The position numbers were made by a program, and so were the translations under genes. The notes under the pieces were generated by a model that did not search any database, was not told where the DNA came from, and was given only the letters and a program-made list of their open reading frames with translations. A DNA stretch of 33,042 nucleotides from Patescibacteria group bacterium (lineage in GTDB: Bacteria; Patescibacteriota; Patescibacteriia; 2-12-FULL-60-25): the NCBI GenBank assembly GCA_022703155.1, contig JAKLEH010000011.1, positions 1-33,042 on the forward strand, written 5' to 3'. Every line of letters begins with the position of its first letter. Within the stretch, counting starts at the first letter, position 1. Shown piece after piece: positions 13,665 through 31,198 of the stretch.

Positions 13665-14255
13665 ATGCTCATAGGGCTCTTTGAATTGATGGCGCGCATC
13701 CACGAACTCAAGACGACCGCGCGCACCGGCTGGAACATGGAATTCCCGCCGGACCACAAGTTTAAGACGCGCCGCGTCCCGGAAGCGGAAAGCGTGGCCG
13801 ACCACAGCTACGGCCTGGCCATCTACGCTTTTGCCTTGGCGACCGAGCTTGGCCTGGACGTCGAGAAGACGGTCACCATGGCGCTCGTGCACGACGCCCC
13901 CGAACTCATCACCCTGGACATCGTGACCGCGACGCTCGGCCCTGAGGAGAAGGCGCAGGCCCAAACCGACAAACGGTTGCGCGAAGAAGCCGCCGCCCGA
14001 ACGCTCTTTTTGCCCCATGGCGCGTTCGGCGCCCGTTGCTTTGAGCTGTGGCTCGAATTCGAAGACCAAAAAACAGAAGAAGCCCGCCTGGTACGCCAAC
14101 TCGACAAATTCGAATGCGCGGCCCAAGCCGTGTTTTACGCCAAGCAGGGGCATCAAGTCGATCCGCTCGAATTCGTCACCCACGCCGCGGCGGAAATCAC
14201 CCATCCCCTGCTCGTCGAAGCGCTCGCCGACCTGCGCCGGCAATGCGGAGCGTGA
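13665..14255 (+). CDS. HD-domain phosphohydrolase, YfbR/HDDC2-like
   Basis: A 196-residue metal-dependent phosphohydrolase. The HD motifs are complete: ESVADHSYG with His47, ALVHDAPE with His76-Asp77, and a late Asp in RQLDKFECA (about 146). The E-x-V-A-D-H-S and HD-x-P-E elements are those of 5'-deoxynucleotidase YfbR and its relatives, which cleave deoxynucleoside monophosphates. GGAGG before the ATG fixes the start. A clear terminator follows. Nucleotide clean-up or salvage is the most likely role; the exact nucleotide is not decided. Confidence 0.88.
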   Translation: MLIGLFELMARIHELKTTARTGWNMEFPPDHKFKTRRVPEAESVADHSYGLAIYAFALATELGLDVEKTVTMALVHDAPELITLDIVTATLGPEEKAQAQTDKRLREEAAARTLFLPHGAFGARCFELWLEFEDQKTEEARLVRQLDKFECAAQAVFYAKQGHQVDPLEFVTHAAAEITHPLLVEALADLRRQCGA

Positions 14256-14262
14256 GAGCTTC

Positions 14263-14288
14263 AAACCGTCATCATAATGACGGTTTTT
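14263..14288 (+). terminator. Terminator of the HD phosphohydrolase gene
   Basis: Perfect 10-bp stem (AAACCGTCAT with ATGACGGTTT), 4-base loop, T run at 14284-14288. It marks the left border of the AT-rich island. Confidence 0.9.
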
Positions 14289-14484
14289 AAATATCTAAAA
14301 AGCGTTGGCCAAAGCCGACACTTTTTTGATTAAGAAATTCGTATGACTATTGCTACTAACTTAGATTAAAAAACAGGTGGCATCTTATATTCTTGCGTCA
14401 ATATAGTTATGGGTATATACTCTTTATAGCAACTCACCAAAGGTCGAATCTTAATTCAAACTAACGATTTTTTTCGAAAAGCAT
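14289..14484. other. AT-rich leader region of the island
   Basis: No gene is visible. The stretch holds the promoter at 14393-14421 and a roughly 60-base leader before DUF5320. Base composition is visibly lower in GC than the genes to the left. Confidence 0.5.
14393..14421 (+). promoter_or_regulatory. Promoter of the island genes
   Basis: TTGCGT (14393-14398), 17 bases, TATACT (14416-14421). The leader to ATG 14485 is about 55-60 bases, longer than at most promoters here, leaving room for control. Confidence 0.65.
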
Positions 14485-14724
14485 ATGCCAAACATGAATG
14501 GAACGGGTCCGCTGGGCCAAGGTGCAGGCACCGGTCGAAGAATGGGTTCTTGCGGTGCCGGCGTGGGAATGGGACGTGGTTGTTGTGGCGGCTACGGGCA
14601 AGGGCGCAGGAGATTCATATCTACCAAGAATGAATTGTCTGCTTTGGAAGAAGAGGAAAAGAGACTATTGGCAGATTTGGAGGTCGTCAAAGCCGAAAAA
14701 GAAGCCCTTAACGCTGAAAAATAA
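14485..14724 (+). CDS. DUF5320 small Gly/Cys-rich protein
   Basis: A 79-residue protein with the DUF5320 signature. The start MPNMNGTGPLGQGAGTGRRMG is followed by a Cys- and Gly-rich middle (SCGAGVGMGRGCCGGYGQGRRR). A charged coiled coil forms the C-terminus (LSALEEEEKRLLADLEVVKAEKEAL). Proteins of this family usually accompany UPF0251 regulators and NifX/NifB-type cofactor proteins in anaerobes, and their role is not established. The UPF0251 partner is the next gene, but no NifX-like gene is present. The three Cys residues could bind a metal. AT-richer than the flanking core genes. Confidence 0.8.
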   Translation: MPNMNGTGPLGQGAGTGRRMGSCGAGVGMGRGCCGGYGQGRRRFISTKNELSALEEEEKRLLADLEVVKAEKEALNAEK

Positions 14725-14737
14725 AATTGATTTTTTG

Positions 14738-14771
14738 AACCCGCCCCTTCTTTATCACGAAGGGGCGGGTT
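14738..14771 (+). promoter_or_regulatory. Strong hairpin between DUF5320 and UPF0251 genes
   Basis: A 13-bp perfect inverted repeat (AACCCGCCCCTTC with GAAGGGGCGGGTT) and an 8-base loop. There is no T run after it, so it is not a standard terminator. It may pause or partly stop transcription or protect the upstream mRNA end. Confidence 0.6.
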
Positions 14772-14779
14772 GCGGCATG

Positions 14780-14785
14780 TATAAC
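14780..14785 (+). promoter_or_regulatory. -10 box of the UPF0251 gene
   Basis: TATAAC, 7 bases before ATG 14793, which has no Shine-Dalgarno sequence. The spacing matches other leaderless starts in the window. No -35 box is visible. Confidence 0.45.
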
Positions 14786-14792
14786 AAAACTT

Positions 14793-15080
14793 ATGCCAAG
14801 ACCAACGCTTTGTTTTTGTAAACGCATAAAATTCGAGCCGAATGCCGTTTATTTCAAACCGCAGGGCATTCCAATACAAAGTTTGCATGTCATTGAGCTT
14901 ACGATGGAAGAAATCGAGGCGTTTCGCCTGCGTCATATAATAAACTTGGAGCAAAAAGAGGCGGCCGTTAAAATGCAAACTTCAACGAGCACCTACCAAA
15001 GAATCCTTAATTCGGCTTATGCAAAAATCGCTGATGCCATCATAAACGGAAAAGCGATTAAAATCATTAAACACGAATAA
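14793..15080 (+). CDS. UPF0251/DUF134 helix-turn-helix protein
   Basis: A 95-residue DNA-binding protein of the UPF0251 family. Family elements are visible: MPRP...C-x-C at the start, the F-x-P-N-x-x-Y-F-K-P-x-G-I-P segment, LTMEEIEAFRLRHIINLEQKEAA, then a helix-turn-helix (VKMQTSTSTYQRILNSAYAKIADAI) and NGKAIKI. The Cys pair near residues 7-9 is usually part of a metal site, and members are suspected metal- or redox-responsive regulators. As the neighbour of DUF5320 it probably controls this island. Confidence 0.85.
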   Translation: MPRPTLCFCKRIKFEPNAVYFKPQGIPIQSLHVIELTMEEIEAFRLRHIINLEQKEAAVKMQTSTSTYQRILNSAYAKIADAIINGKAIKIIKHE

Positions 15081-15157
15081 TATGTTTTTGAAAGTCGGGT
15101 TGGCTTAAGCTTTCCCAATCTCTAGATTATTAGCCAGCTCAACTCATAAAAAGGATC

Positions 15158-15439
15158 ATGAACCCACCTATGAAAATACTTAAATTCGGCGCAGTTTGGT
15201 GCCCGGGCTGTCTTGTTATGAAGCCGCGATGGAAGGAAATCGAGGCTGAAAATCCGTGGCTTGTGACGGAATACCACGACTTCGATACGGATAAAGACGT
15301 CGTCCGTATATTCAATATCGACAATACCTTGCCAACATTCGTTTTTTTGGACAAGGATCAACAGGAGTTCTTGCGACTCAATGGAGAAATCGAAAAAGAT
15401 AAACTCATCGAAATCATCAATACAAACAAGGACAGATAA
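15158..15439 (+). CDS. Thioredoxin-like protein with CPGC active site
   Basis: A 93-residue thioredoxin-fold protein without a signal peptide, so probably cytoplasmic. The active-site segment is FGAVWCPGCLVMKPRW (the CxxC reads C-P-G-C), followed by a long helix, a beta strand with the cis-Pro loop (NTLPTFVFLD) and a closing helix. Family members reduce disulfides or pass electrons to membrane carriers. An AAGGAT Shine-Dalgarno sequence precedes ATG 15158. Only 3 bases separate it from the DsbD-like gene, so the pair probably works as an electron relay: this protein inside, the fusion protein across the membrane. Confidence 0.85.
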   Translation: MNPPMKILKFGAVWCPGCLVMKPRWKEIEAENPWLVTEYHDFDTDKDVVRIFNIDNTLPTFVFLDKDQQEFLRLNGEIEKDKLIEIINTNKDR

Positions 15440-15442
15440 GTT

Positions 15443-16726
15443 ATGAATAGAATCGTCCGCAAATCGATTTTCTTGTCGTTATTCGTATTTTCAATGTTTG
15501 CGCATTCCGCCGCCGCGCAGTCTCTGTCTGTTAATGCTTATTTCTACTACAGCGACGGATGCCCGCACTGCGCCAAGGAGAGGCGGTTTTTGTTCGACGA
15601 ACTATCGAGAGAATCCCCAAGCCTAAAAATTTACGAATACGAGGTTTCGAATAATGAAAAGAACGCGTCACTTTTATTGAAAACGGCTCAAACGCTCGGT
15701 GTCAGTGTGGATGGGGTGCCGTTTTTAGTCATCGGTGACAAGCACTTTGTCGGTTATGCAAACGGAATAAGCTCCGATGCAATCGAACGAAGGGCGCAGG
15801 AATGCTCATTGAAAGAATGTCCGGATTCGATCGCCTCAATTGTTGGCTTGAGCGCCATAAACGCTCGTATGGATGGATCATCGAAACCTGACGCGATTAC
15901 GCAGACGGCTGCACTGATTAATGACAGCCAAAGTACCGACGGTGTCCATACGACGGATAGGCAGGGCATGAATAGCGAAAAAATAGTACGCATTCCTTTG
16001 CTGGGCGATGTAAACGTCATGAGTTTTTCCTTGCCGTTACTGACCGTCATCTTAGGAATATTAGATGGTTTTAACCCATGCGCGACGTGGACGTTACTTT
16101 TTTTGATCAGCTTGCTTTTAGGCATGGAAAACAAGCGACGGATGTGGATTTTAGGAAGTGCGTTCATCGTCGCTTCCGCCTCAGTCTATTTTCTATTCAT
16201 GTCGGCATGGCTTAACCTTATCCTATTTTTAGGATTCGTGGTTTGGATAAGAACGTTTATCGGAATCTTGGCTTTTGCGGGAGGCGGTTATAATCTCAAA
16301 GAATTCGTTTTTAACAAAACCGGTGGATGCAAAGTGGCCGGAGATGAAACGAGACAAAAGGTTTTCGGGCAACTACAAAAAACCGTCCAGCAAAACAGCT
16401 TCTGGTTAGCTTTAGGTGGCATCGTTATTTTAGCGTTTATGGTGAACCTTGTTGAGCTGATCTGCTCGGCGGGACTTCCGGCTGTTTATACTCAAGTACT
16501 AGCCCTAAATAAAATGGATGGCTGGCAATACCATCTTTACATTTTATTGTATATTCTGTTTTTCATGTTGGATGACCTATTTGTTTTCTTTATCGCGATG
16601 ATCACGTTGGAAATGACTGGCATAACCACCAAATACGCACGTATCTCCCGTCTTGTTGGCGGAATCATCATGTTGATCATTGGCATCGCACTGATTTTTA
16701 AACCAAGCCTGCTGATGTTTGGGTGA
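15443..16726 (+). CDS. Exported thioredoxin domain fused to DsbD/CcdA-like membrane domain
   Basis: A 427-residue protein. A signal peptide (residues 1-25) is followed by an outer thioredoxin/glutaredoxin-like domain with active site C-P-H-C (YYSDGCPHCAKERRF). It keeps the GVPFLVIG cis-Pro loop. A polar linker of about 70 residues leads to a six-span membrane domain like DsbD/CcdA. That domain has one Cys in FNPCATWTLLF and another in ELICSAGLPAVY, the pair expected to carry electrons across the membrane. The short cytoplasmic thioredoxin encoded just before is the probable donor. Together they could reduce disulfides outside the cell. The domain order differs from E. coli DsbD, where the gamma domain is C-terminal. 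Confidence 0.87.
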   Translation: MNRIVRKSIFLSLFVFSMFAHSAAAQSLSVNAYFYYSDGCPHCAKERRFLFDELSRESPSLKIYEYEVSNNEKNASLLLKTAQTLGVSVDGVPFLVIGDKHFVGYANGISSDAIERRAQECSLKECPDSIASIVGLSAINARMDGSSKPDAITQTAALINDSQSTDGVHTTDRQGMNSEKIVRIPLLGDVNVMSFSLPLLTVILGILDGFNPCATWTLLFLISLLLGMENKRRMWILGSAFIVASASVYFLFMSAWLNLILFLGFVVWIRTFIGILAFAGGGYNLKEFVFNKTGGCKVAGDETRQKVFGQLQKTVQQNSFWLALGGIVILAFMVNLVELICSAGLPAVYTQVLALNKMDGWQYHLYILLYILFFMLDDLFVFFIAMITLEMTGITTKYARISRLVGGIIMLIIGIALIFKPSLLMFG

Positions 16727-18178: not shown

Positions 18179-20914
18179 TTAAGCCCGGAGCGTAAACGGA
18201 TTGGCGTCCGCATCTTTAGCCACGGATCGCGGAACGTGCGCCAAGGCCGCGATCAATTTGGAAGGCGCATAATGCGTCCTGACGACCCGATTGGGAGCCG
18301 TGGCGTTAGCGTCGACCGTCAATACAACGCTTTCCGGACCCAAACCGGCGACTTCCTCAAAACCGACCACGAAATCGTCCCGCTCGACGCCGGCCATGTC
18401 GCTTTCGACCCTGACCTTATAGCCGTGCGCCAACAAGGCGACGCTCGCCATTTCCCGCCAATCCTCATCCAAGCCCACCAAAACCACATCGCCTTTGACG
18501 GGCGGAAATTTTTTAAGGCTTTCCAAAGCGCGTTTGATTTTTTCCGCTTCCGCGGCGTCTTGGGCGCGGGTGTAATGCCGCGACAAGTCCTTCAGGCATT
18601 CGCGCGGCACTTCGCACAACCGCACGCGCAAAGGTTCGGTAACCGGAAGGTGCTCGGGATAGTGCAAATGGTTCAAATGGATCAACGTATCGACGCGTTT
18701 CCTTTCGCGCTCCGACACGTCCGAATGGTACACCAGCCGCTTCACCTCGTAGGCCTCTTCCGCAGCGCCACGGCGCAACGCGTCTTCCAAGACGGCCGTG
18801 CCCATGCCATCGCCCAATTTGAGCAGTGCTATGGCCGCAGTCAACGCAACCCGACGGTTGTGGCGGTTTAGCGCTTCCACCAACCGGTCGCGGTAATTCG
18901 GCAAGTGCAAGGCTCCGATGAGATACAGTCCTTGAATCTCGGCTTCCGAATCGCGCGGGGCGGCCAAAAATTCGTCGAATTTGGATTTTATCAAGTGCCT
19001 TTCCCAATCGAATTGCCACAACGCTTTGACGGCCATGGCCACTATCTTGTGTTCGGGATTTTGCAGATACGGCCTGACAGCATCGATGATTCCGGGATCG
19101 TGGAAATTGCGCAAACTATGGAGACAGCGGATACGCATCTCGTCGGGCCCCTGTTCCAACAAACCGAGCAAAAACGGCACGATCTCCGGATCCCTTAAGG
19201 ATATAAGGGCCGTCAGGATTTCCCCTTTGGCTTCGGAAACCGTCTCTGCGGCATAAGCCTCATGCAGTTTCTCGAGCAGCATCTGGCGCGAAAAACCCAA
19301 ATCGAACAGCAGTTCCGGGGTATAACGGAAAGAAGCTATGGTCCGATAAGCTTCGCGCCGCAAATCTTCGTGTTCGTCCTGCAACAACTTGCTCACCGCC
19401 CTTAAAACCGACGGATCGCCGATGGTCGAGAGGGTTTTTAGGGCCGTGACGCGCAACATCACGGACTCGGCCGGATCGCGCACGATGTCCAAAATTTCGG
19501 CCAAATGCCGGTCGCGCATATGCTTGACCTCGGCCAAAGCCTCCATGGTGCGCACGCGGGTCTTAAAGTCGCATTCCTTGAGGCTGTGCAGCAAGACCTG
19601 CGGGTAAATGCGCCGCACGTGCATGGTGATGAAGATCTGGAGGACGATGAACTCCACGGCGAACAAAGCTACGGAACGGATCGAGCTTTCCGGTTCCGCG
19701 TCCGAAAGGAAATACGCCACCCCGGCCAAAAAGACGCTGCCCAACAAATTGCCCAGCGTCAAAGCCGGACCGTTCATCCAGGTCCAAGCCTGGCTGCGTT
19801 GATAGTCGCTGATGCCGCTCAACAAGAAACGCAATGAAGATTTTTGCAGAAAAATGAAAACCTCTCGCGAAAACACCACCATCACCACCACGAAAAACCA
19901 CGGCCAGATGAACATGGCGGCCGCGCCAAGCAGCATGAGGAACGGCGGCACGAACAGGTTATGCGTCAAGCCGTAACGTTTGAACAGCCAACGCTGCAGG
20001 GTATTGATGTACACCAACGTCACCACGCTCAAAATGGCGGTATACGTGCCGATGAATTCGTTCAAAGCGCTTTCCGATCCGTAACGGCTGTTCGACGCGA
20101 TGGCGAACTCATAGCTAAAAATGCGCGTGAAGACCATGTACAAGGCCATGATGCCGCCAAGCAGATACACGAACCGCCGCAGCGCCGGATCCGTATACAG
20201 ATTTTTCAAACCCCAAGAACCGGCTAACGAGGCCTTGCGCTTGCCGTTGCCGTTCTCTTGGGCCATGACCATGGACCCCAACGACCGCCGGGCCTTATTG
20301 CGCAGGAACAGGCAAAACGGCGCGGACAAGACCAACAACGACGGCACCAGCAAAAACATGCCCGTATGGTCCAGGCGCGCGCTCAGAAGCGCGGCCAAGC
20401 TGCCGGCGACCAACGCGCCCAATTGCATGCCGCTGGCGAAAACAGGCTCCAGGCGCTGCATCTGCTCCACGTTAAACACGTCCGCAGGAGAATTCAGGAA
20501 CTTATGGAGACCGATGTACAGCAAAGACGTGGTAATGACCAAGCCCAAGCCCACAAACGCGACGATGACGGCCAGACCGGATTCCTTGACGAAGAATTGC
20601 TGGGTCAAAGCGAACGCCAAAGCCAACGGGATGGCCAACAAAACCATTTCCATGCTTTGCGACATGGCCCGCATGCGGCGCAGGAATTTGATGGCGAACC
20701 ACGAACCCAGATAAAACGCGAACGAACTGGCGATGTAGAACGGCGGAAGCCACGCCACGCCCAAACGTTTGATGAGCAACGCCTGCAACAGGTTCCAAGC
20801 CAAGGTGTTGGCCGCGGAAATGAAAAAAATCGCCCCCGTGAAACCAAAAACCCAAGGCCTTTCCGTCGCATCAATCCTAAACCAGTCCCCTAGCCTGTCC
20901 AAAGTTTTTGGCAT
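18179..20914 (-). CDS. Nucleotide-transporter-like membrane domain fused to HEAT repeats and a receiver-like domain
   Basis: A 911-residue protein in three parts. Residues 1-430 contain about 12 membrane spans resembling the ATP/ADP antiporter (Npt/TLC) and MFS group (EFIGTYTAILSVVTLVYIN; SGMQLGALVAGSLAALLSARL). Residues about 440-740 are tandem alpha-helical HEAT-type repeats (R-x-T-A-L-K-T-L-x-x-x-x-D-P-x-V; L-R-x-x-A-x-R-x-x). Residues about 815-895 fold-match a receiver-like domain (VVLVGLDEDWREMASVALLAHGYKV...SVVLTVDANA), without an obvious phosphoacceptor Asp. Transporter-HEAT fusions of this kind occur in several bacterial phyla, and their substrate is unproven. The gene has its own extended -10 promoter and no Shine-Dalgarno sequence. 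Confidence 0.82.
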   Translation of the reverse strand: MPKTLDRLGDWFRIDATERPWVFGFTGAIFFISAANTLAWNLLQALLIKRLGVAWLPPFYIASSFAFYLGSWFAIKFLRRMRAMSQSMEMVLLAIPLALAFALTQQFFVKESGLAVIVAFVGLGLVITTSLLYIGLHKFLNSPADVFNVEQMQRLEPVFASGMQLGALVAGSLAALLSARLDHTGMFLLVPSLLVLSAPFCLFLRNKARRSLGSMVMAQENGNGKRKASLAGSWGLKNLYTDPALRRFVYLLGGIMALYMVFTRIFSYEFAIASNSRYGSESALNEFIGTYTAILSVVTLVYINTLQRWLFKRYGLTHNLFVPPFLMLLGAAAMFIWPWFFVVVMVVFSREVFIFLQKSSLRFLLSGISDYQRSQAWTWMNGPALTLGNLLGSVFLAGVAYFLSDAEPESSIRSVALFAVEFIVLQIFITMHVRRIYPQVLLHSLKECDFKTRVRTMEALAEVKHMRDRHLAEILDIVRDPAESVMLRVTALKTLSTIGDPSVLRAVSKLLQDEHEDLRREAYRTIASFRYTPELLFDLGFSRQMLLEKLHEAYAAETVSEAKGEILTALISLRDPEIVPFLLGLLEQGPDEMRIRCLHSLRNFHDPGIIDAVRPYLQNPEHKIVAMAVKALWQFDWERHLIKSKFDEFLAAPRDSEAEIQGLYLIGALHLPNYRDRLVEALNRHNRRVALTAAIALLKLGDGMGTAVLEDALRRGAAEEAYEVKRLVYHSDVSERERKRVDTLIHLNHLHYPEHLPVTEPLRVRLCEVPRECLKDLSRHYTRAQDAAEAEKIKRALESLKKFPPVKGDVVLVGLDEDWREMASVALLAHGYKVRVESDMAGVERDDFVVGFEEVAGLGPESVVLTVDANATAPNRVVRTHYAPSKLIAALAHVPRSVAKDADANPFTLRA

Positions 20915-29548: not shown

Positions 29549-29574
29549 AAAAACCCGCGACGGTCCGCGGGTTT
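29549..29574 (-). terminator. Terminator of the cysteine-rich protein gene
   Basis: AAACCCGCG/CGCGGGTTT stem with a 6-base loop and a T run on the minus strand, right after the stop codon at 29595. Confidence 0.9.
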
Positions 29575-29594: not shown

Positions 29595-31148
29595 CTATTT
29601 AATCGTGCCGTAGCACGTGTTCTTGCACTGCATCAATTCGTTGGAGCAGATGTCCATGTTGGCGTTGTCCAGCATTTGGCAATTTTGGTATTCTGGTACG
29701 CATTTTTCCTTATAACACGTTTCGCCGGCCGTATTGAGCGGAGCGGCTGCGGGAGAAGTTTGCGCCTCGGTCCCGCCGGTCTGTCCTGAACCGCTCGACG
29801 CCGAACCGCAACTGTCGAAACAGTCCGTGATTTCGTTGAAGCATGAAGCCGATTCGCACTTGGCGTATTTGTCATGACAGGCTCCCAATTGTTCGACGCC
29901 GCATGTGGTGCAGGTTTTTTGGCAATAGCTCTGCACGGCGTCGCACACCGCTTCGTTCTTGTTCAGGTCCATGCAACGCGACCGGATCTTGTCGCACGCG
30001 TAAGCCTGCTTGTCGTCGCAAGACGCTGCCGCATCCTGGGGAGGCTGGCATTTTTCCAAGCACATTTTTTTATTCTTGAAACACACAATTTCGTCGGTCT
30101 TTTGGTCGCCTTGGGCCACGCCCGAGGAGCACTTCTTGTACTCTTCCTCGCAAGCCATGGCTTGTTCGTCGGAACATGCTCCAGTGCCGCCGGAAGCCTG
30201 TTCAGGGTTATTTCCCGTGCATTTGTCTATGCAGTCCTGCTGCATCTTTTTGGCGCCGGCCTCATCGCCGGCCTCAATGTATTTTTTGTACGTGTCGTTG
30301 CACGCCGCCAATTCCTTTTCCGTGCACTTGCCGGTTTGCGGCTGCGATTTGCAGACTTCGGATTGGCACGTCCCCTTCAGCTTGTCGCACAGGGCCAACG
30401 CGTCTTTGCTGTAACTCGCCGAACCGCCTTTGCAAATCGCTTCCATGCGCTTGCATTGGTCAGGACAGGCGTCGTCGGGAATGGAATTTTCGTCCTTGAG
30501 CTTGCAGGCTTTGACCAAACACGTGCGGTTGTTGGTCCGGCAAGACTCGACCGCATTGGCTTTTGACGACAGCGAGGCGTATTCAAGACAGCCGCCCAAA
30601 GCCACGGCGCAACGGTCTTGGCAGGATATGGGGGGACGCGGCATGTCGTTGCATTTGGTCACGCAAGAGTTCGCGTCGGCCAAGCATTGGTCAAGACCGC
30701 CGACCGCCAAGACCGAAGGTTTGGCCGTGGCGCTCCCGCCTTTGGCTTTGCATTGCGCCAAAGCTTTGCGGCAATCATTGAGACATTCAGAACGTCCGTC
30801 TTCGGCTTTGCACGTCACTCCGGATTTGAGCATGTCGGTCACCATGCCGGCCTGCTGCGTTCCGGACATGGTCTGCAAAGTCTGTTCCATACTCTTCAGT
30901 TGGTCTTGGAGCTTTTGCAGTTGCGCCGCGTCCACGGAAACCTTCTTGCCACCCGTGTCGCTCTGCGCCCAAAGCGCCACCGGACCGCCGATCACCAGCA
31001 ACGACAAAACCACCAATCCCACCAGCCATTTGGCGAAAGGGTTTTGCGGCGCTGTTGACGGAGCCGTGGGTGGAACAGTGTCCGGCTCGCTAATCGGCGT
31101 CGGCGGTTCGTCCGCCAAGCCACGCTTGCCGCGTTTGGTTTTGACCAT
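29595..31148 (-). CDS. Membrane-anchored protein of eight six-cysteine repeats
   Basis: A 517-residue protein not assignable to a known family. Residues 1-40 are basic and Pro-rich, and one span follows (WLVGLVVLSLLVIGGPVALW). A short coiled coil (LQKLQDQLKSMEQTLQTM) precedes eight repeats holding 46 of the 47 Cys. Each repeat has one helix-like arm C-x(3-7)-C-x6-C, a linker, and a second arm C-x6-C-x(3-4)-C. Examples are CSDEQAMACEEEYKKC then CFKNKKMCLEKC. The fourth repeat has lost one Cys from each arm. The seven complete units could each make three disulfides. The protein should lie outside the cell, tethered by the span. The TTG at 31154 is rejected for ATG 31148. The promoter at 31190-31198 and a palindromic leader suggest regulated expression. 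Confidence 0.85.
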   Translation of the reverse strand: MVKTKRGKRGLADEPPTPISEPDTVPPTAPSTAPQNPFAKWLVGLVVLSLLVIGGPVALWAQSDTGGKKVSVDAAQLQKLQDQLKSMEQTLQTMSGTQQAGMVTDMLKSGVTCKAEDGRSECLNDCRKALAQCKAKGGSATAKPSVLAVGGLDQCLADANSCVTKCNDMPRPPISCQDRCAVALGGCLEYASLSSKANAVESCRTNNRTCLVKACKLKDENSIPDDACPDQCKRMEAICKGGSASYSKDALALCDKLKGTCQSEVCKSQPQTGKCTEKELAACNDTYKKYIEAGDEAGAKKMQQDCIDKCTGNNPEQASGGTGACSDEQAMACEEEYKKCSSGVAQGDQKTDEIVCFKNKKMCLEKCQPPQDAAASCDDKQAYACDKIRSRCMDLNKNEAVCDAVQSYCQKTCTTCGVEQLGACHDKYAKCESASCFNEITDCFDSCGSASSGSGQTGGTEAQTSPAAAPLNTAGETCYKEKCVPEYQNCQMLDNANMDICSNELMQCKNTCYGTIK

Positions 31149-31150
31149 AT

Positions 31151-31171
31151 GCAAAATTTTGCGTAACGCAA
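31151..31171. promoter_or_regulatory. Two overlapping palindromes in the leader of the cysteine-rich gene
   Basis: The perfect palindrome GCAAAATTTTGC (31151-31162) overlaps TTGCGTAACGCAA (31159-31171, odd-length dyad). Both lie between the promoter and the start codon. They could be an operator or an mRNA hairpin. Confidence 0.5.
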
Positions 31172-31189
31172 ATAAAAAATCTTGTACTG

Positions 31190-31198
31190 ATTATATCA
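31190..31198 (-). promoter_or_regulatory. Extended -10 promoter of the cysteine-rich gene
   Basis: Minus-strand TGA-TATAAT with TATAAT at 31190-31195, about 41 bases before ATG 31148. No clear -35 box. Confidence 0.6.

What the first reader, a model, noticed from the sequence alone, without database searches (positions are those of the whole stretch)
29595..31198. Undescribed surface protein built of eight six-cysteine helical hairpins
Seen directly: 47 Cys, 46 of them in eight units, each C-x(3-7)-C-x6-C, a linker, then C-x6-C-x(3-4)-C. The spacing repeats eight times, with one degraded copy. The protein has a single membrane anchor and a coiled-coil stem, so the repeats should be outside the cell. 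The helical spacing recalls twin-CxnC hairpins such as CHCH proteins, but the three-Cys-per-arm pattern is unlike those. I cannot name a family. It could be a rigid surface stalk, a metal store or a cysteine-bonded wall layer. This is the strongest novelty candidate in the window.
Basis: partly seen in the sequence, partly recalled or inferred. Interest (0 to 1): 0.82.

Follow-up and report, generated by a model that had tools for sequence, protein, structure and literature searches.

The report
Disulfide-stapled helical hairpin surface protein
A tiny, uncultured groundwater-type bacterium (Candidatus Uhrbacteria) makes an exported protein built from eight repeats that each look like two helices stapled together by two or three sulphur bridges; the repeat matches no named protein family and is reused in several exported proteins of this lineage, most likely as a tough spacer on the cell surface.

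Summary
The gene runs 31148 to 29595 (-) and encodes 517 aa with 47 Cys, 46 of them in eight mirrored units. Unit 4 has lost exactly the two inner Cys. The genome is a ~1.23 Mb Patescibacteria MAG; related MAGs are labelled Ca. Uhrbacteria.

No Pfam, NCBIfam, PHROG or PDB family matches. Relatives occur only in one GTDB family: long homologues in 8 of 41 genomes, and the unit in at least 16. Across 60 units, 50 have six Cys with near-fixed spacing and 10 have four; none has five. The missing pair is always C3/C4, which supports nested pairing C1-C6, C2-C5, C3-C4 in an antiparallel helical hairpin. AlphaFold2 gives two helices per unit (single unit pLDDT 82; full length weak, 55). The genome encodes a VKOR-DsbA-like oxidase.

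In two sister species the window's units 4-7 are replaced by a PF03640 domain. In a near-universal membrane-anchored coiled-coil scaffold the hairpin is an optional C-terminal module. My best reading is a modular, oxidatively locked stalk or head on the cell surface. The stalk role is inferred. Copper storage (Csp) is less likely but not excluded. The "membrane anchor" may instead be a cleaved signal peptide.

The parts
29595..31148 (-). Gene of the Cys-hairpin protein, 517 aa (ATG 31148, stop 29595-29597)
   Evidence: homologues in 8 of 41 genomes of the GTDB family
30972..31040 (-). Hydrophobic segment (residues 37-59) after a basic N-terminus: membrane anchor or signal peptide; P56 and A61 invariant in the first six homologues aligned
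30867..30929 (-). Predicted helix 74-94, coiled-coil-like stem (low confidence)
30651..30785 (-). Unit 1, Cys gaps 3-6-21-6-3, conserved in all long homologues
30504..30623 (-). Unit 2, gaps 3-6-15-6-4 (most conserved, CxDRCAVALGGC)
30351..30467 (-). Unit 3, gaps 3-6-14-6-4
30219..30326 (-). Unit 4, four-Cys form (gaps 7-22-3), inner pair C3/C4 replaced by Tyr290/Ala299
30048..30176 (-). Unit 5, gaps 7-6-15-6-3, lineage-specific C-x7-C type
29910..30020 (-). Unit 6, gaps 7-6-9-6-3, lineage-specific type
29808..29903 (-). Unit 7, gaps 7-6-4-6-3, shortest loop
29613..29717 (-). Unit 8, gaps 4-6-10-6-3, corresponds to the last unit of the homologues
31190..31195 (-). TATAAT, possible -10 element in the 77-bp gap after the CCA-adding enzyme gene (read by eye; no good -35)
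   Evidence: no consensus promoter
29551..29574 (-). Likely intrinsic terminator (10-pair stem, T-rich tail) between this gene and rarA

Best explanation
It is an exported protein made of a new, modular domain: an antiparallel two-helix hairpin in which three Cys on one face of each helix form a ladder of nested disulfides (C1-C6, C2-C5, C3-C4). The chain is exported by its N-terminal hydrophobic segment and oxidised outside the membrane by the cell's VKOR-DsbA-like fusion. It then stands on a short coiled coil as a string of rigid, protease-resistant hairpins. I infer that it works as a hardened stalk or head on the cell surface, able to carry other domains (PF03640 in two sister species). 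Shown: the unit, its conservation and modularity, the pairwise loss of C3/C4, and an oxidase in the genome. Predicted: helical hairpins. Inferred: the disulfides, the topology and the stalk role.
For: Spacing: 49 six-Cys units in the first 18 proteins, C2-C3 gap always 6, C4-C5 gap 6 in 47; one search adds a fiftieth. Gaps 3+6 put three Cys within a 40-degree arc of one helix face; 4.7% of gap pairs do so. Co-loss: 10 four-Cys units all lack C3 and C4, and no five-Cys unit was seen. AlphaFold2: single unit two helices, pLDDT 82; full length 16 helices matching eight hairpins, pLDDT 55. Oxidase: VKOR in G000 and 29 of 41 genomes over cut-off, in G000 with a C-terminal CPGC DsbA-like part. Modularity: PF03640 in place of units 4-7 in two congeners; hairpin appended to the RYVGP membrane scaffold in 7 of 29 copies read; three units plus a large C-terminal part in L082. 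Location: all seven long homologues with readable flanks lie upstream of rarA, uppS and/or ftsI.
Against: No coordinates were available, so Cys-Cys distances were not measured. The full-length model is weak. The co-losses are not independent: five are in one protein, and at least two separate lineages are involved. Some units have gaps (C-x7-C, C-x4-C) that break the one-face rule at the outer rung. The intrinsic terminator separates the gene from rarA, so the envelope-gene neighbourhood does not prove a shared function. Six of nine genomes of the genus lack the gene.
Confidence: 0.5

Rival explanations
1. Extracellular metal store: the Cys are reduced thiolates lining helical bundles that bind Cu(I), Zn or another soft metal, like the copper storage proteins (Csp).
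For: Csps are Cys-lined helical bundles with CXXXC motifs, and Csp1 is exported (PMC5171941); Cys density is comparable (6 per two helices).
Against: No DUF326/Csp match in the protein and none over the cut-off in any of 41 genomes. An extracellular protein in a cell with a VKOR-DsbA-like oxidase is likely oxidised. Csp bundles avoid disulfides. Only one His in 517 aa, while Csp3 has conserved His at the bundle mouth. Always-paired loss of C3/C4 fits disulfides better.
Confidence: 0.12
2. Disulfide-linked wall layer: the hairpins or the odd Cys113 cross-link neighbouring molecules into a network around the cell, like a Cys-rich envelope layer.
For: Odd Cys count in the window copy; exported; gene lies among envelope genes; Cys-rich exported proteins are known in Peribacteria (PMC4736985).
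Against: Six-Cys units are complete in themselves, and L003, L004, L006, L040, L041 have even Cys counts without an odd Cys. Present in a minority of genomes, with no sign of the high copy or multi-gene family expected of a coat.
Confidence: 0.12
3. Secreted or surface binding protein: each hairpin is a small, disulfide-hardened binding head (adhesin or effector towards a host or partner cell), the segment at 37-59 being a cleaved signal peptide.
For: P56 and A61 invariant with small residues often at -3; several proteins end in a single hairpin with nothing beyond it (L042b, L083, L084); loops vary greatly (4-57 residues) and surface residues vary, as binding surfaces do.
Against: No binding partner or host known; two sister species carry another domain between the units, which suits a spacer as well; no cleavage data.
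Confidence: 0.25

Closest known systems
Twin CX3C / CHCH helical hairpins (small Tim chaperones, COX17-like, UQCRH) of mitochondria
   Same: Two antiparallel helices stapled by nested disulfides in an oxidising compartment; the four-Cys form here (C-x3-C ... C-x3/4-C) has the small-Tim layout (layout from general knowledge)
   Different: A third inner rung at +7, long tandem arrays, a membrane/secretory leader, bacterial; no sequence match (best PDB profile hits are not significant: beta-defensin 106 E = 2.3, UQCRH E = 9.8)
Copper storage proteins Csp1/Csp3 (DUF326, PF03860)
   Same: Cys-lined helices with CXXXC motifs, many Cys per helix pair, Csp1 exported
   Different: No DUF326 match; Csp thiols are reduced and metal-filled, and Csps have conserved His (PMC5171941)
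Cys-rich large extracellular proteins of Peribacteria (PMC4736985)
   Same: Exported Cys-rich proteins in the same radiation, proposed attachment role
   Different: Those average 1,655 aa and weakly resemble Myxococcus Cys-rich repeats; no relation shown to the 3-6-n-6-3 hairpin
PF03640 Lipoprotein_15 proteins (SCO0930 type)
   Same: Two sister-species homologues carry two PF03640 stretches between hairpins
   Different: The window protein has no PF03640; the domain's function is unknown

Membership tests
Twin CX3C / CHCH hairpins | Two helices with two Cys each in CX3C or CX9C spacing, nested disulfides | tested here: not met
   Main form has three Cys per arm (49 of 54 units); a four-Cys twin-CX3C form exists; disulfides not measured
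Twin CX3C / CHCH hairpins | Sequence match to a CHCH/Tim family | tested here: not met
   Pfam, PDB profile
Copper storage protein (DUF326) | PF03860 match | tested here: not met
Copper storage protein (DUF326) | Reduced thiolates that bind Cu(I) | not testable with these tools
   needs protein; VKOR-DsbA-like oxidase argues against
New Uhrbacteria hairpin domain (proposed) | C-x3-C-x6-C-loop-C-x6-C-x3/4-C (or the four-Cys form) after an exported N-terminus | tested here: met
New Uhrbacteria hairpin domain (proposed) | Antiparallel helical hairpin | tested here: met
   AlphaFold2 single unit, two helices, pLDDT 82; prediction only
New Uhrbacteria hairpin domain (proposed) | Three stacked nested disulfides | tested here: inconclusive
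   pairwise C3/C4 loss supports nesting; no coordinates or mass spectrometry

The most novel reading that the evidence does not exclude
A bacterial, extracellular counterpart of the mitochondrial twin-CX3C hairpin world: a family of modular, VKOR/DsbA-oxidised disulfide-ladder hairpins that one Patescibacteria lineage shuffles between surface proteins as stalk and head units, arisen independently of CHCH proteins.
Probability: 0.4. Interest if true: 0.65.

Novelty: new variant of a known kind. Interest (0 to 1): 0.52.

Why it matters
Patescibacteria are ultra-small, mostly uncultured, and their contact surfaces are largely unknown. An unnamed domain that is confined to one lineage, modular and reused in several exported proteins is a direct handle on that surface. 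It is also a simple, testable case of a disulfide-ladder hairpin in bacteria, with both three-rung and two-rung forms present naturally, useful for oxidative folding studies and as a rigid protein scaffold.

Tried and rejected
Pfam, NCBIfam and PHROGs scans gave nothing for the window protein; DUF7440 at E 0.073 is below its cut-off. PDB by profile and by fold: no significant hit. Viral contigs, phages, plasmids: no relative. Csp/DUF326 tested and not found. Spacing-pattern scan of 380 genomes of the phylum: the listed hits outside the family are mostly low-complexity or off-frame DNA by eye, apart from one real single-unit protein in another family, G675; that may be convergence. Weak hits of the first search to other genomes' N-termini (E 0.001-0.4) were leader-sequence matches and were dropped. 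Literature on PF03640 function and on Cys-rich Uhrbacteria proteins: nothing useful. Operon with rarA: set aside because of a good terminator in between.

Full report
Where and what. The gene lies on the minus strand, 31148 to 29595, and encodes 517 aa with 47 Cys. The window is contig C3 of a 1.23 Mb, 98% complete genome. The ATG at 31148 is the natural start; 31198 is not.

The repeat. Eight units hold 46 of 47 Cys. Their Cys gaps are 3-6-21-6-3, 3-6-15-6-4, 3-6-14-6-4, 7-22-3, 7-6-15-6-3, 7-6-9-6-3, 7-6-4-6-3 and 4-6-10-6-3. Shuffling the extracellular part gives at most one such unit, against seven found. With gaps 3 and 6, the three Cys of an arm fall within 40 degrees on one helix face; only 4.7% of gap pairs between 2 and 9 do this. 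The order is mirrored in the second arm, as expected for antiparallel helices.

Relatives. A search of 57 relatives found five clear homologues (E 1e-12 to 1e-50), and a profile of the core (A2) found two more in the same GTDB family and none elsewhere in 381 genomes of the class. Together with the window genome that makes 8 of 41 genomes with a long homologue. In the first six aligned, all 18 Cys of units 1-3 are invariant. A profile of one unit (A3) matched 15 of 41 genomes of the family; G060 adds a sixteenth. In 380 genomes of the phylum the fixed pattern 3-6-13-6-3 found one convincing protein in another family (G675). No relative was found in viral contigs, phages or plasmids.

How the protein varies. 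Two species of the same genus (L003, L004) share the leader, units 1-3 and the last unit, but carry a PF03640 stretch pair (E 1e-24) where the window has units 4-7. Units 4-7 share a C-x7-C type first arm, and units 4, 5 and 7 resemble each other outside Cys, so they are probably local duplications. Thus the eight-unit form is peculiar to this lineage. Elsewhere the hairpin closes much shorter proteins (163-190 aa: L042b, L077, L083, L084). A small membrane-anchored coiled-coil protein with the motif RYVGPxxHxRDHH is present in 35 of 41 genomes. Of 29 copies read, seven end in a six-Cys hairpin, some with additional four-Cys hairpins; the copy in the window's own genome has none. This is what an independently mobile domain looks like.

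Pairing. Of 60 units counted, 50 have six Cys and 10 have four. All ten four-Cys units lack exactly the inner pair; no unit has five Cys. Loss as a pair is expected if C3 and C4 are bonded to each other. The caveat is relatedness: five of the ten sit in one protein (L122), and the units were called by hand.

Structure. AlphaFold2 on a single unit with 25 aligned units gives two helices (9-26, 32-48; pLDDT 82, core near 90). The full-length model has 16 helices that coincide with the eight hairpins, with a hydrophobic helix (37-59) and a stem helix (74-94), but low confidence (55). Fold searches gave nothing significant, as expected for so small a fold.

Oxidation and topology. VKOR is present over the cut-off in 29 of 41 genomes, among them the window's genome, there followed in one reading frame by a DsbA-like part with a CPGC motif. 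So disulfide formation outside the membrane is plausible. The basic N-terminus before the hydrophobic segment puts the Cys part outside. Whether the segment stays as an anchor is open: P56 and A61 are invariant in the first six homologues, and several relatives read AGA, AMA or AQA before a Gln or Val, which suits signal peptidase I.

Neighbourhood. In the genus, the gene sits between a CCA-adding enzyme or methyltransferase-like gene and rarA, followed by ftsI. Six of nine genus genomes have the same neighbours without it. In the other genera it sits just upstream of uppS, then rarA and/or ftsI. The slot is thus old, with repeated loss. A good terminator follows the gene in the window, so I do not claim an operon.

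Function. The parts fit a hardened, exported stalk or head: leader, short coiled coil, rigid hairpins, sometimes another domain. I give this 0.5 overall, with about 0.85 for the disulfide-hairpin structure itself. Rivals are a binding head or adhesin (0.25), a metal store (0.12) and a cross-linked wall layer (0.12). Csp-like storage is disfavoured by the missing DUF326 match, the scarcity of His and the oxidase.

Novelty. No library names the domain. The closest idea is the mitochondrial twin-CX3C/CHCH hairpin, which it resembles in layout, not sequence. I rate it a new variant of a known kind: a new family of disulfide-stapled helical hairpins with a third rung.

Noticed in passing
L083:2474-3025 (-); also G000 contig C45 15009-15221 (L147): A small membrane protein with N-terminal CGHxGCGGGxCNVRYVGPxxHxRDHHIVHAA, a TM segment and a coiled coil is present in 35 of 41 genomes of this GTDB family with a variable C-terminus; the copy scanned (L083) has no significant Pfam match. 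The conserved Cys/His part looks like a cytosolic metal site.
   Followed up: partly
L122 (G060:C161 3961-4398 region): A 491-aa version of that scaffold carries five four-Cys twin CX3C/CX3-4C hairpins and one six-Cys hairpin, a natural series from two to three rungs.
   Followed up: partly
L085:1514-2596 (-) (G675): In another family of the phylum a TM protein starts with one perfect 3-6-13-6-3 hairpin, followed by a larger domain and a C-terminal hydrophobic segment; convergence or transfer not tested.
   Followed up: no
L082:2521-3912 (+) (G010): Three hairpins followed by a ~270-residue C-terminal part without Pfam match.
   Followed up: no
window 14001-16000: GC drops to 0.457 against about 0.56 around it, with many small ORFs; possible acquired segment.
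   Followed up: no
window 15443-16726 (+): 427-aa ORF with a sub-threshold glutaredoxin-like match at its N-terminal part (E 0.0068), near the low-GC stretch.
   Followed up: no
window 18179-20914 (-): 911-aa protein with HEAT repeats (PF13646, E 3e-19).
   Followed up: no
window 31158-31172 (-): Perfect inverted repeat TTTGCG-TTA-CGCAAA just upstream of the start codon; possible regulatory site, not tested in relatives.
   Followed up: no
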